From: an uncultured Prevotella sp.
Lineage (GTDB): Bacteria; Bacteroidota; Bacteroidia; Bacteroidales; Bacteroidaceae
Length of the DNA stretch: 56,069 bases
Assembly (NCBI GenBank): GCA_944321645.1
Contig: CALUMB010000007.1
Location: 1 to 56,069 of the forward strand
Direction of reading: 5' to 3'
The notes under the pieces were generated by a model, which saw nothing but the letters and a program-made list of their open reading frames with translations, did not search any database and was not told the origin of the DNA. Positions 10,132 through 47,366 of the stretch are shown here, piece after piece (the first letter of the stretch is position 1; each line of letters starts with the position of its first letter). A program made the translations under genes and the position numbers.

Positions 10132-10547
10132 CGGAATGTTAAAACGGGGTAGCCCGATGCCGCCCGTTTCAGGCATATCCTGAAAAATTTGCCGCCCCGG
10201 CTGCGTATATCGCGAAGATGGGTGTGCAACCGTAACGCATTGGCTTTACTCGACTTACGGGTTCCAACAACCTAATTGTGCAACAAACTGCCTCCTTTTT
10301 TTGTCAGGAAACAGGCCAAAAACACCGCATTTTTCGATAAAAACGGCTTGCAAAATGTGCCGTTCCGGCTTAAGAAACAGGCCGTTTCGCAACCTAAAAC
10401 GTGCCGTTTCGGTTTGCGAAACGGCCCGTTTTGCAAATCAAGGCCGCCAAAGCCATGATTCTTCGTGGCCGGAATGGCTTTGTCAAAATTATTCGGGTCC
10501 TTTTCGATGTGTTAAATCCGGCAAGGCGATATGCTAAAAAACACAAA
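10132..10547 (+). repeat. Dispersed ~415-bp intergenic element, copy A, with 4 x 22-bp array
   Basis: This fills most of the 660-bp divergent gap between fetA and dnaB, which otherwise holds only the two promoters. Its left part (GGAATGTTAAAAC at 10133, ATATCGCGAAGATGGGTGTG near 10205) aligns with copy D at 39029-39445 and, on the opposite strand, with copy C at 30968-31380. Its right end carries GTGTTAAATCCGGC (10509 on) and GCTAAAAAACA. Inside, 10352-10439 is an array of four 22-bp units. Units 3 and 4 form a hairpin with 15-bp arms, one mismatch and a 7-nt loop (10396-10432). I see no protein with good codon structure here. Confidence 0.8.
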
Positions 10548-10664
10548 AAGCAAACAGCCCCCCGCTATGCGCCGCCCTTTGCGGCAACGCTCCCACAGCC
10601 TCGAAAGAGCATCATCTTAGGCGGCAAATGCAGGACTGAAGGCAGCGGTTTCGCTCTTTTTTTG

Positions 10665-10672
10665 TATTTTTG
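10665..10672 (+). promoter_or_regulatory. -7 element of the dnaB promoter
   Basis: TATTTTTG matches TAnnTTTG and ends 21 bp before the dnaB ATG at 10694. The leader would be short, about 15 nt. It lies in a T-rich run; no clear -33 TTTG was found. Confidence 0.55.
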
Positions 10673-10693
10673 CAGTCTGAAAAACTAACGACA

Positions 10694-12244
10694 ATGGCAG
10701 AACAAGACAGCAACAAGCCACGCAGGCCGCGCAAGGCGGCACCCGTGGACAACACATACGGCCACCTCCAGCCGCAAGCGCCGGAACTGGAAAAGGTGGT
10801 GCTCGGCGCACTCATGATAGACAAAGACGCCTACACCGTGGTGTGCGAGATGCTCCGCCCGGAGAGCTTCTACGAGCCGCGCAACGGCAAGGTCTACGCG
10901 GCCATACGCGACCTGAGCATGGCGCAGCAGCCAGTCGACGAGCTTACCGTGGCGCAGCAGCTCGCAAAGAACGGCGACCTGGAAGAGGTGGGCGGCCCAG
11001 CCTACCTCGTGGAGCTTACGTCGCGCACGGCATCGTCGGCCAACATAGAGTTCCACGCCAGGGTGATAGCGCAGAAGTCGCTCGCCCGCCAGCTCATATC
11101 GTTTGCAGGGATGATAGAGACGAAGGCTTTCGACGAGACGATAGACATAGACGACCTCATGCAGGAGGCCGAAGGGTCGCTCTTCGAGCTGTCGCAGCAC
11201 AACATGAAGAAAGACTACACGCAAATAGACCCGGTGATAAAAAACGCCGTGGACGTGATACAGCGTGCGGCGGCAAACAAGGACGGACTGACGGGCGTGC
11301 CGTCGGGCTACCACAAGCTCGACGACATGACAAGCGGCTGGCAGGCCAGCGACCTCGTGATCATAGCCGGCCGCCCGGCCATGGGCAAGACCTCGTTCGC
11401 CCTCTCTATGGCCAAGAACATAGCCGCCGACTACAAGGTGCCGATGGCTTTCTTCTCGCTCGAAATGAGCAACGTGCAGCTCGTCAACAGGCTCATATCC
11501 AACTGCTGCGAGATACAGGGCAAGAAGATACAGAACGGGCAGCTGCAGCCCGACGAGTGGGAAAGGCTCGACAAGCGCATGAACAACCTGCTGGGGGCAC
11601 CGCTCTACATAGACGACACGCCCGGCCTGTCGGTGTTCGAGCTGCGCACCAAGGCGCGCAGGCTCGTGAGGGAGCACGGCGTGAAGCTTATCATGATAGA
11701 CTACCTGCAGCTGATGAACGCCAACGGGATGCGCTTCAGCAGCAGGCAGGAAGAGGTGTCAACCATCTCGCGCTCGCTAAAGATGCTGGCCAAGGAGCTT
11801 GACATACCAATACTGGCCCTGAGCCAGCTGAACCGCGGCGTGGAGTCGCGCGAGGGGCTTGAAGGCAAGCGCCCGCAGCTAAGCGACCTGCGCGAGTCGG
11901 GAGCCATCGAGCAAGACGCCGACATGGTGCTCTTCGTACACCGCCCGGAGTACTACCACCTCTACCAAGACGAAAAGGGGCGCGACCTGCACGGCATGGC
12001 GCAAATCATAATAGCCAAGCACCGCAAGGGCGCAACCGGCGACGTGCTCCTCGCATTCAGGGGCGAGTTCACCCGCTTCGAGAACCCGGAGGACACGCAG
12101 CTCGGGGCGCCGGCCGGCGCCGACATGGGCGGCGGCGAAATAGTAGGCTCGCGCATTAACGGCGACGCCGGAATGCCGGACGTACCCGACGACTACGACC
12201 CGTTTGCCACATTCGCCCCGCCATCTGAAGGCCCGGCGTTTTAG
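10694..12244 (+). CDS. dnaB: Replicative DNA helicase DnaB
   Basis: 516 residues with an N-terminal DnaB domain (PQAPELEKVVLGALMIDKDA on) and a RecA-like C-terminal helicase domain. Visible motifs are Walker A in GRPAMGKTSFALSMA, Walker B in LIMIDYLQLM, and the DnaB signatures SQLNRGVESR and DLRESGAIEQDADMVLFVHR. It unwinds the chromosome at the fork as a hexamer. I start at ATG 10694 (MAEQDSNK) because the -7 promoter element lies inside any longer frame. The N-terminal tail is short and basic (RRPRKAA). No intein is present, although DnaB is a frequent intein site. It is transcribed alone, with a 220-bp gap before thrA. Confidence 0.96.
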   Translation: MAEQDSNKPRRPRKAAPVDNTYGHLQPQAPELEKVVLGALMIDKDAYTVVCEMLRPESFYEPRNGKVYAAIRDLSMAQQPVDELTVAQQLAKNGDLEEVGGPAYLVELTSRTASSANIEFHARVIAQKSLARQLISFAGMIETKAFDETIDIDDLMQEAEGSLFELSQHNMKKDYTQIDPVIKNAVDVIQRAAANKDGLTGVPSGYHKLDDMTSGWQASDLVIIAGRPAMGKTSFALSMAKNIAADYKVPMAFFSLEMSNVQLVNRLISNCCEIQGKKIQNGQLQPDEWERLDKRMNNLLGAPLYIDDTPGLSVFELRTKARRLVREHGVKLIMIDYLQLMNANGMRFSSRQEEVSTISRSLKMLAKELDIPILALSQLNRGVESREGLEGKRPQLSDLRESGAIEQDADMVLFVHRPEYYHLYQDEKGRDLHGMAQIIIAKHRKGATGDVLLAFRGEFTRFENPEDTQLGAPAGADMGGGEIVGSRINGDAGMPDVPDDYDPFATFAPPSEGPAF

Positions 12245-12385
12245 CCCGCAGGCGGCCAAGCCGCACCCGCAGGCCGGCGCGGAGGGTAAGGGCAAAAGCC
12301 AATCTTCATATCCTTGAATCATTAAATCTCGGCTCGCCCGCTTCCTTTTTGTCACGAAAAAGTTGCCGGTCACGATAATTTTCAC

Positions 12386-12393
12386 TAAATTTG
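12386..12393 (+). promoter_or_regulatory. -7 element of the thr operon promoter
   Basis: TAAATTTG matches the consensus. TTGC at 12363-12366, 19 bp upstream, is a partial -33 match. The predicted leader of about 65 nt contains a GC-rich stretch but no convincing threonine-rich leader peptide. Confidence 0.6.
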
Positions 12394-12465
12394 CACGGGT
12401 GTTATAAACAAATGGTAACGCCGCCCGGCCCATAGGGCGCGACAAACAATAAAAGAAAACGACTG

Positions 12466-46473: not shown

Positions 46474-46824
46474 ATGCTATCAAGCGACAAGAACATCGAG
46501 TCGTTAGGTCGGCTCATAGAAACCCTTAAGGACTACATCGGGCTTCAGGCTGAATACCTGAAGCTCGATGTGGTCGAGAAGTTCGTCCGCCTGGCCACGG
46601 TGCTGGCGGTTGGCGCCATCATGCTTGTGCTGGCGCTGGCCGTTGTGTTCTACCTCTCGTTTGCGATGGTGTATTGGCTCGAGCCGGCCACGGGCGTGGC
46701 GTGCGCCTTTGCCATAGTGGCCGCAGTGCTGCTCCTGCTGCTGCTCATCGTGTATGCGCTGCGCAAGCCGCTGATTATGAGGCCACTCGTGAAGTTCATC
46801 GCAAGCATCCTGCTAAGCAAATGA
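46474..46824 (+). CDS. Holin-X/phage-holin-family small membrane protein
   Basis: 116 residues. An N-terminal amphipathic helix (SLGRLIETLKDYIGLQAEYL) precedes two membrane helices (about 43-65 and 70-95) and a basic end. This is the pattern of the putative Actinobacterial Holin-X / phage holin families that occur with YtxH genes in Bacteroidota. There is no phage context, so lysis is unlikely. Likely an inner-membrane partner of the neighbouring YtxH protein. Confidence 0.8.
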   Translation: MLSSDKNIESLGRLIETLKDYIGLQAEYLKLDVVEKFVRLATVLAVGAIMLVLALAVVFYLSFAMVYWLEPATGVACAFAIVAAVLLLLLLIVYALRKPLIMRPLVKFIASILLSK

Positions 46825-46844
46825 CGCTCTAAAAACAACCAGAC

Positions 46845-47105
46845 ATGGCCAACAACAACCAGACATACCACACGCTTGCCGACATACAGGCACGCAAGGG
46901 CGAACTGCGGAACGCCATCGACAAGAAAGGCGAACAGATAGGCACGCTGTGGAACGGGCTATTCACGCCAAGCAAGGCAAACACAAGGGGCGAACTTGTG
47001 GCCAACCTGATAAGCAACGGCATAACGGCTTTCGACACTTTCATGCTCGTGAGGAAGCTGATGGGCAAATACGGCGGCCTGTTCAAGGGCAGGAAGAAAC
47101 GTTAG
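46845..47105 (+). CDS. Small protein of unknown function, third gene of the YtxH unit
   Basis: 86 residues, no family recognised. It has a charged N-terminus (LADIQARKGELRNAIDKKGE), a motif LWNGLFTPSKANTRGELVAN, and a weakly hydrophobic stretch (NGITAFDTFMLVRKLMGKYG) with a basic end (KGRKKR). It starts 20 bp past the holin-like gene. A terminator follows at 47173-47208. Probably membrane-associated with its two neighbours (inference). Confidence 0.72.
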   Translation: MANNNQTYHTLADIQARKGELRNAIDKKGEQIGTLWNGLFTPSKANTRGELVANLISNGITAFDTFMLVRKLMGKYGGLFKGRKKR

Positions 47106-47172
47106 CCCGACGCACTTGCCCCGCAGCGGCAGGGCGCGAAGCATGCGCCACGCCAAGCCAAAGCCAACCTCG

Positions 47173-47208
47173 CAACGCACGCCGCATAGTGCGCTGCGTT
47201 GTTTTTTT
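47173..47208 (+). terminator. Intrinsic terminator of the YtxH operon
   Basis: CAACGCA (47173-47179) pairs with TGCGTTG (47195-47201), extended inside by GCA/TGC, followed by seven T (47202-47208). It lies 67 bp past the last stop codon. Confidence 0.8.
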
Positions 47209-47234
47209 ATGCAGCCGGACCTGCATAAAAAAAC
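47201..47234. repeat. Perfect 14-bp inverted repeat overlapping the terminator
   Basis: GTTTTTTTATGCAG (47201-47214) and CTGCATAAAAAAAC (47221-47234) are exact complements around CCGGAC. The T-run is on the left arm and the A-run on the right, the reverse of a normal bidirectional terminator. It would pair with the U-run of the preceding terminator. Confidence 0.7.
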
Positions 47235-47278
47235 ATCGTCGGCAGTACCATGCGCCAGCCAGAGCCGTTCCGCTTTCC

Positions 47279-47366
47279 AAAACGTGCCGTTTTGGAGCCT
47301 AAAACGGCACATTTCGCATCCTAAAACGACCTGTTTTGAAACGCAAAACGGCACGTTTTGCAAACT
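47279..47366 (+). repeat. 4 x 22-bp palindromic array, copy E
   Basis: Units at 47279, 47301, 47323 and 47345, each AAAAC....GTTT-like, with a decayed fifth unit before them (47257). Units 1 and 2 form a hairpin with 15-nt arms and 7-nt loop. It is in the 524-bp gap between the YtxH unit and the thioredoxin-like gene. I cannot extend E to the full 415-bp element. The remainder (47367-47592) shows nothing I can name. Confidence 0.8.

What the first reader, a model, noticed from the sequence alone, without database searches (positions are those of the whole stretch)
10352..47366. Five intergenic arrays of exactly four 22-bp palindromic units
At 10352-10439, 22349-22436, 31083-31170, 39247-39334 and 47279-47366 the sequence has a strict 22-bp period over four units. 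Each unit is a 15-nt imperfect palindrome (core AAACGGCACGTTT or its complement AAACGTGCCGTTT) plus a variable 7-nt spacer. Units differ in sequence yet keep length, phase and copy number, which argues against simple slippage. The first unit of an array is usually the complement of the last, so neighbouring units fold into hairpins with 15-nt arms and 7-nt loops. Two helical turns per unit would put a bound protein on the same DNA face. I cannot name a known family. Function as nucleoid or structural site, RNA element or mobile remnant is open.
Basis: seen in the sequence. Interest (0 to 1): 0.82.

Follow-up and report, generated by a model that had tools for sequence, protein, structure and literature searches.

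The report
Evenly spaced four-palindrome chromosome landmarks
This Prevotella genome carries, in the gaps between genes and mostly 6.5 to 13.5 thousand bases apart, short arrays of usually four 22-letter palindromic units, and other Prevotella species carry arrays of the same layout spelled differently; the arrays are likely binding pads for a still unidentified protein that would mark or partition the chromosome.

Summary
The five arrays belong to a genome-wide family: 56 arrays in 765 kb of the same genome, 41 with exactly four units (36 of 51 outside the window), strictly 22-bp phased, none overlapping a called gene, and spaced more evenly than random intergenic sites. The layout (AAA-N7-TTT-N9, 22 bp) has at least 20 matches in 74 of 299 genomes of the genus, usually with another sequence; of 148 other genomes of the order none stands clear of its control at that level. 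Arrays are the core of larger intergenic elements. In P. intermedia/nigrescens-like relatives these match PINSR, a 188-bp repeat of unknown function described in 2015. Column-wise constraint at orthologous sites, a half-site grammar and the usual copy number point to a DNA-binding site kept by selection; RNA folding and paired changes are not supported. Some copies travel inside IS982-type MITEs. Best explanation: evenly spaced multi-dyad landing pads for an unidentified protein, probably structuring or insulating the chromosome. The protein was not found, so function stays inferred.

The parts
10352..10439 (.). Array 1, four 22-bp units, between an ABC-transporter ATPase gene (9402-10031, -) and dnaB (10694-12244, +), divergent gap
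10130..10550 (+). Class II flanking element around array 1 (approximate ends)
   Evidence: aligned with nine other class II copies by script and eye
22349..22436 (.). Array 2, four units, between an aminotransferase gene (21166-22206, +) and a TPR gene (22776-23924, -), convergent gap
22270..22505 (-). Class I flanking element around array 2 (approximate ends)
31083..31170 (.). Array 3, four units, between an acyl-transferase gene (29937-30779, -) and a class I Glx-tRNA synthetase gene (31545-33263, +), divergent gap
30965..31380 (-). Class II flanking element around array 3 (approximate ends)
39247..39334 (.). Array 4, four units (first one degenerate), between an epimerase gene (37644-38897, +) and a small called gene without Pfam match (39504-39893, -), convergent gap
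39030..39445 (+). Class II flanking element around array 4 (approximate ends)
47279..47366 (.). Array 5, four units, between a small called gene (46845-47105, +) and a thioredoxin-like gene (47630-49576, +); flank class unclear

Best explanation
The five arrays belong to a genome-wide, evenly spaced family of intergenic elements whose core is usually four phased 22-bp dyads, and each core is likely bound cooperatively by copies of one still unidentified dimeric DNA-binding protein that would mark or insulate the chromosome at intervals of roughly 10 kb. SHOWN: the family, the layout, the intergenic placement, the spacing, the recurrence of the layout across the genus under different sequences, and column-wise constraint at sites shared by two sister species. 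INFERRED: each 22-bp unit is a dyad of two half-sites (A-tract plus 3-4 specificity letters), so an array offers eight half-sites every 11 bp on nearly one face of probably curved DNA; the protein binds them as a row of dimers, and its specificity drifts between lineages, which re-spells the sites while phase and number stay. The complexes would act as boundaries (supercoil or transcription insulation, or anchoring). PARTLY SHOWN: in P. intermedia-like relatives some arrays ride inside IS982-type MITEs and so reach new gaps; sites that are kept are then held by selection.
For: Lag spectrum with only 22 and 44. 41 of 56 arrays have exactly four units with sharp, mirror-symmetric ends. No array overlaps a called gene: 0 of 56 here, 0 of 83 in G108. 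Spacing: own genome 31 of 46 intervals in 6.5-13.5 kb against 16.2-17.8 expected from random intergenic gaps, 2 under 5 kb against 11.7-12.9, not reached in 5000 draws; G108 2 of 82 intervals under 3 kb against 12.0-13.2, p 0.0005 or less, and 65 in 3-16 kb against 48-50. Layout in 74 of 299 genus genomes with 20 or more matches, 51 of them also above three times the reversed-pattern control; none of 148 other genomes of the order passes both (counted by eye). Column constraint: variance of column conservation 0.0325 against 0.0015 under uniform decay; at 11 orthologous sites paralog-conserved columns differ at 6.1% (77 of 1265), poorly conserved columns of the same elements at 45% (114 of 253), outer flanks at 21.1%. 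Half-site grammar: linked 3-nt switches at three positions and avoidance of one combination, in 123 copies. AA/TT steps phased at 10.5 bp: amplitude 11.5 against 2.7 shuffled in the own genome, 14.3 against 3.3 in G108. A 59-kb phage-like contig has none.
Against: No binding protein was identified or searched for systematically. Arrays are gained and lost: of 18 G017 elements in spans aligned with G108, 5 lack a counterpart. Some copies lie in MITEs with IS982-type ends. Most genomes of the genus do not show the layout at this threshold (225 of 299 have fewer than 20 matches), so it is not essential to the genus. In G108 the interval CV (0.92) is not below the null (0.89-0.91) and intervals under 5 kb are not significantly depleted (19 against 23-24, p 0.11-0.15), so there the rule is only an exclusion of close neighbours. 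Selection was measured in the G017/G108 pair, not in the window's own species. A strict 22 bp is not the best phasing for naked curvature (10.5 bp per turn).
Confidence: 0.45

Rival explanations
1. Non-autonomous mobile repeats: MITE- or REP-like selfish DNA that spreads with a transposase supplied in trans, the array being its recognition core, without host function. Selection on columns would be selection for being copied; spacing would come from target immunity or from loss of close pairs by recombination.
For: One clean insertion with an 8-bp target duplication and matching ends in G017, empty in G108; the ends resemble those of four 1.0-kb IS982-family elements in 1 Mb of G108; 3 of 83 G108 arrays lie in 453-456-bp units with such ends; presence/absence differences between sister species; an inversion with arrays at or next to both ends; patchy distribution.
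Against: 80 of 83 G108 arrays are not inside a detected end-to-end unit; an end-like motif within about 400 bp was counted for 16 of 83 (G108) and 17 of 44 (G017), an upper bound because at that stringency (4 mismatches) the reversed sequence gives 66 hits against 78. No pair of 54 copies is above 90.5% identical. Conserved columns stay conserved at fixed orthologous sites after insertion. No Y1 (RAYT) transposase in the own genome or in 14 of 20 array-rich genomes. No such ends were found in the own genome's elements, but this was judged by eye only.
Confidence: 0.3
2. Operators of one global transcription regulator (a regulon of some 200 sites) or of several paralogous ones.
For: Dyads, half-site variants, intergenic position, several unrelated 22-bp families in one genome.
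Against: The largest classes lie between convergent or same-strand genes and not at promoters: divergent gaps hold 11 of 53 arrays here and 7 of 83 in G108; in G108 the nearest gene start is at least 145 bp away (median 393). Even spacing is not expected of a regulon.
Confidence: 0.12
3. RNA elements: bidirectional terminators or structured RNAs formed by hairpins of the units.
For: Palindromic units; many copies downstream of genes.
Against: RNAalifold on 123 copies gives -2.7 and -4.7 kcal/mol with almost no covariation term; no complement excess between units; strand-symmetric deviations; orientation in G108 unrelated to transcription in same-strand gaps (5 with, 4 against); no Rfam match at arrays.
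Confidence: 0.05
4. Ends or remnants of Tn7-like transposons, whose right end carries four adjacent 22-bp TnsB sites (recalled; one search gave only a listing).
For: About four adjacent 22-bp sites in some 90 bp; TGT/ACA-like flanks in G108.
Against: Units are palindromes; conservation continues outside the TGT/ACA; no cargo seen. The PF09299 search was silent in the own genome but also in all 14 control genomes, so it tells nothing.
Confidence: 0.03

Closest known systems
[quoted passage not shown] 2015, PMC4755523; abstract text, passages and the whole of section 3.4 seen)
   Same: About 200-bp intergenic repeat, order of 180 copies per genome, no ORF, involved in rearrangements, mostly absent from mobile islands; the G108/G017 elements match P. 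nigrescens at 78% over 85% of the query in 13 places.
   Different: PINSR was defined by its sequence and a PCR limited to one clade, and section 3.4 mentions no internal 22-bp units. The window's arrays have another sequence. The paper's PCR found PINSR in only four species, not including P. marshii DSM 16973, whose genome here (L077) has arrays of the 22-bp layout with another sequence (38 matches against 2). Section 3.4 reports no terminal inverted repeats; here some copies of the relatives lie in units with IS982-type ends.
BrickBuilt MITE/minisatellite of Porphyromonas gingivalis (PMC4596501; outline with abstract, section 5 and part 1 of section 7 read)
   Same: Intergenic element with a core of tandem repeats of about two helical turns between conserved flanks, in the same order; MITE ends resembling IS ends.
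   Different: 23-nt direct repeats, 1 to 22.8 of them, 19 copies, ends of the GAGACC type; here 22-bp dyads, usually four, about 200 copies by extrapolation (56 in 765 kb), and ends not detected in the own genome.
REP/BIME/REPIN repeats (recalled; listing and starts of abstracts)
   Same: Hundreds of palindromic intergenic repeats whose sequence changes between species; proposed protein binding.
   Different: Fixed 22-bp phase and mostly four units; no RAYT in the own genome or in 14 of 20 array-rich genomes.
Tn7 right end (recalled)
   Same: Four adjacent 22-bp protein sites in about 90 bp.
   Different: Sites here are palindromes in free-standing elements; no Tn7-type gene shown.

Membership tests
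PINSR | Sequence homology to the P. intermedia/nigrescens repeat (window arrays) | tested here: not met
   The own motif differs; the genomes with the PINSR-like element (G017, G108) have 0 matches to the own motif. Own class I flank resembles the G108 flank only by eye.
PINSR | Sequence homology (G108/G017 elements) | tested here: met
   78% identity over 85% of a 241-bp query in P. nigrescens, 13 places. The published consensus (a figure) was not available, so identity with PINSR itself is inferred.
PINSR | Intergenic, high copy, non-coding | tested here: met
   0 of 56 own arrays and 0 of 83 in G108 overlap a called gene.
MITE | Terminal inverted repeats and target duplication (window's own elements) | tested here: inconclusive
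   Flanks aligned and read by eye only; no ends recognised.
MITE | Terminal inverted repeats and target duplication (G017/G108 elements) | tested here: inconclusive
   Met at one clean G017 site and ends paired around 3 of 83 G108 arrays; not met for the bulk.
BrickBuilt | 23-nt direct repeats in variable number with leader, tail and GAGACC-type ends | tested here: not met
   22 bp, dyads, 41 of 56 with four units.
REP/RAYT system | Y1 tyrosine transposase (PF01797) in the genome | tested here: not met
   0 in the own genome (89.6% complete; control rang in 5 of 14); present in 6 of 20 array-rich genomes.
Tn7-like ends | TnsB-like transposase | tested here: inconclusive
   PF09299 silent, but silent in all 14 controls too.
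Structured RNA | Conserved secondary structure with covariation | tested here: not met

The most novel reading that the evidence does not exclude
A genus-wide system of chromosome landmarks that works like a bacterial counterpart of fast-evolving satellite or insulator DNA: a multimer-binding protein and its four-dyad pads co-evolve and are re-spelled lineage by lineage, while phase, unit number and a spacing rule of several kb stay fixed; PINSR is one spelling of it.
Probability: 0.3. Interest if true: 0.9.

Novelty: new variant of a known kind. Interest (0 to 1): 0.72.

Why it matters
PINSR was reported in 2015 as a lineage-specific repeat of unknown function. Here a PINSR-like element appears as one spelling of a layout that recurs across a large gut and oral genus, with an internal grammar (usually four 22-bp dyads, alternating half-sites every 11 bp), constraint at fixed sites and a spacing rule. 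If the inferred protein exists, Prevotella would have a site-specific chromosome-organising system, testable with one pull-down and one contact map; if it does not, this is an unusually constrained mobile repeat whose constraint needs explaining.

Tried and rejected
RNA hairpins between units: rejected. Rfam family: none at arrays (window and three G108 stretches). RAYT/REP mobilisation: not consistent. Tn7-like ends: considered because of four adjacent 22-bp sites and TGT/ACA-like flanks; the family test was uninformative. Empty-site test with the gyrA neighbourhoods of named relatives: synteny too poor. A short ATG..TAA reading in class II flanks: not kept, start and stop vary (by eye). Phages: no hit for one G108 element among 50,697 phage records; the exact own two-unit pattern is in one viral contig. 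My first idea 'species-specific motif' was corrected: the own motif reaches 20 matches in 7 of 299 genomes including its own. Lineage-wide fixed differences between G108 and P. nigrescens copies: only 7 degenerate P. nigrescens copies in 250 kb, 0 columns with both consensus frequencies at 0.8, so no statement. One search stopped with an error in its third null model (weight by gap length); only the first two nulls were obtained. Rows dropped before counts: low-complexity windows; arrays without two called neighbours (3 of 56); arrays with other than four units (15 of 56); copies of 90 score or less and duplicates. Gene calls come from a home-made codon-usage caller. Genome counts were made by eye from the tables. 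Outer flanks may include coding DNA.
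Full report
OBSERVATION. The five arrays are present as described, each four units of exactly 22 bp. A unit is a 13-nt near-palindrome AAACG-NNN-CGTTT and a 9-nt spacer of the form YRS-NNN-SYR, itself dyad-symmetric. Dyad centres therefore follow each other every 11 bp, and A- and T-tracts alternate along the array. The first unit of array 4 is degenerate.

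GENOME-WIDE FAMILY. The window is contig C7 of a 2.70-Mb, 134-contig assembly, 89.6% complete; a two-unit pattern has 458 forward matches in it against 19 for the reversed pattern. In eleven contigs held whole or nearly whole (764,738 bp; window) a matrix made from the window's 20 units gives 156 unit pairs at lag 22 and 105 at lag 44; all other lags from 14 to 60 have at most 5. There are 56 arrays of two or more units: 41 with four, 8 with five, 6 with three, 1 with two; outside the window 36 of 51 have four. Strong units are rarely alone (162 of 169 in arrays). Extrapolated by length this is about 200 arrays per genome.

PLACEMENT AND SPACING. With a home-made gene caller no array overlaps a gene; of 53 arrays with both neighbours 20 lie in convergent, 22 in same-strand and 11 in divergent gaps, while the contigs hold 68, 398 and 65 such gaps. 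Neighbouring arrays are on average 12.6 kb apart (median 10.8, CV 0.58, 46 intervals). Against random gaps of at least 230 bp, intervals of 6.5-13.5 kb are in excess (31 against 16.2-17.8) and those under 5 kb are depleted (2 against 11.7-12.9); none of 5000 draws reached these values (first two null models). One 59-kb contig without arrays carries phage portal, capsid and integrase-like genes.

NOT RNA. Unit 1 prefers core TGC and unit 4 core GCA, so arrays are mirror-symmetric on average, and conserved flank letters are mirror-symmetric too. But complement matching between units of one array is not above a position-shuffled null, and deviations from the consensus are strand-symmetric. Among 123 distinct copies of the related element in G108 and G017 the strongest covarying columns are neighbouring letters within half-sites, not stem partners, and no consensus fold appears. 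Rfam has no match at the arrays.

GENUS-WIDE LAYOUT, OTHER SPELLINGS. gyrA of the window places it in the Prevotella group (the best 80 loci bear names such as Prevotella, Segatella, Hoylesella, Xylanibacter). In these 80 neighbourhoods (1.47 Mb) a blind lag scan from 12 to 60 finds 22 arrays at lag 22 in 18 loci, 10 at lag 21, 11 at lag 44, 8 at lag 42 and 0-4 at every other lag, with different unit sequences. A generic three-unit pattern, AAA-N7-TTT-N9, has at least 20 matches in 74 of 299 genomes of the genus; 51 of these also exceed three times the reversed-pattern control, a strict criterion that G017 and G108 miss because arrays with longer A-tracts fit both patterns. Among 148 other genomes of the order 7 reach 20 matches, none of them three times the control (for example 134 against 162); one further genome, G046, has 16 against 0. 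The window's own motif reaches 20 matches in 7 of 299 genomes and gives any match in 24. One genome (G108) holds several unrelated 22-bp families side by side.

THE LARGER ELEMENT AND PINSR. In G108, arrays sit in a conserved unit of about 200-230 bp: 83 copies in 1 Mb, none on the reversed sequence. That unit matches the second replicon of Prevotella nigrescens (78%, 13 places). Naito et al. (PMC4755523, section 3.4 read) describe a 188-bp intergenic repeat, PINSR, with 177 and 184 copies in two P. intermedia strains, without terminal inverted repeats and most likely non-coding, function unknown. I take the G108/G017 element to be PINSR or its close homologue; the printed consensus could not be compared. 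In the own genome arrays have at least two flank classes; the left flank of class I resembles, by eye, the reverse complement of the G108 right flank. A search for 'PINSR' with 'Prevotella' returns only that paper; none of the titles and abstract starts listed by the searches for 22-bp, palindromic or interspersed repeats of Prevotella or Bacteroidales describes the four-unit layout (papers beyond the listed rows were not seen).

MOBILITY. G017 and G108 are 88-93% identical in most aligned blocks (two blocks 81%). Of 18 G017 elements inside aligned spans 12 have an array in the same G108 gap, 5 do not, 1 was not resolved; G108 has one that G017 lacks and one that G017 has shortened to a single unit. 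One G017 insertion is clean: an 8-bp duplication and matching ends, single copy in G108. Similar ends bound 1.0-kb elements encoding an IS982-family transposase, four in 1 Mb of G108, and 3 of 83 arrays lie in 453-456-bp units with such ends. A 14-kb inversion between the two species has arrays at or next to both ends. So MITE capture spreads some copies, but for most copies no such unit was detected.

SELECTION. Under simple decay after spread all columns would decay alike; here the variance of column conservation is about 20 times larger. At 11 orthologous sites, columns conserved among paralogs differ at 6.1%, poorly conserved columns of the same element at 45%, the array as a whole at 13.3%, the element flanks at 20.2% and outer flanks, partly coding, at 21.1%. 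No two of 54 copies are more than 90.5% identical. In G108 short intervals are depleted (2 of 82 below 3 kb against 12.0-13.2), though the CV is not below the null and the depletion below 5 kb is not significant.

INTERPRETATION. The constraint is on DNA half-sites: A-tract plus a few letters, alternating every 11 bp, with two interchangeable letter sets at three positions in the PINSR-like arrays. This fits a row of bound dimers. Depleted short spacing, intergenic placement and absence from a phage-like contig fit a chromosomal structural role better than a regulon; insulation or nucleoid anchoring is my choice, at 0.45, because neither protein nor phenotype is known. The strongest rival is a mobile repeat without host function, at 0.3.

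Noticed in passing
window 49669-49737 (-): Rfam RF04319, FopS family of paralogous sRNAs, 76.5 bits against a gathering score of 56; about 2.3 kb from array 5.
   Followed up: no
window 1-71 (-): tRNA gene cut off by the contig end.
   Followed up: no
G017 C71:34978-39026 (L192): 4-kb segment absent from G108 that carries, by eye, an adenine methyltransferase (NPPY motif), a possible partner nuclease and a glycosyltransferase, with one array near its right end.
   Followed up: partly
G108 C1:640765 and 656420: Arrays at or next to both ends of a 14-kb inversion relative to G017; another rearrangement breakpoint also lies at an array (563509).
   Followed up: partly
G108 C1, e.g. 46025, 125722, 75587 (L173, L177, L174): Further unrelated 22-bp array families in the same genome, e.g. 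units around ACACGTAAA and AAATATGACGTCATATTT.
   Followed up: no
G017 C79:23120-23260: An array that is full in G108 is reduced in G017 to the last unit between intact flanks, as if three units were deleted in phase.
   Followed up: no
G046 (another family of the order): 16 generic three-unit matches against 0 control, looking like true 22-bp arrays outside the genus.
   Followed up: no
80 gyrA loci, lag 21: A second period, 21 bp, has 10 arrays in 9 loci (lag 42: 8), suggesting a sister layout.
   Followed up: no
L251 (IMGVR_UViG_3300028380_000033): The one viral contig with an exact two-unit match to the own motif; whether it is a prophage with host flank was not checked.
   Followed up: no
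L124 (JAMPFD010000022.1): A record titled Bacillota bacterium carries a gyrA close to Prevotella and a 22-bp array; probably a misnamed or mixed bin.
   Followed up: no
window about 10150-10280 and the other class II copies: Class II flanks hold a strongly conserved stretch like GCAAATANCGCAAAAATGGGTGTGCARCCGTAAC upstream of the array, function unknown.
   Followed up: no
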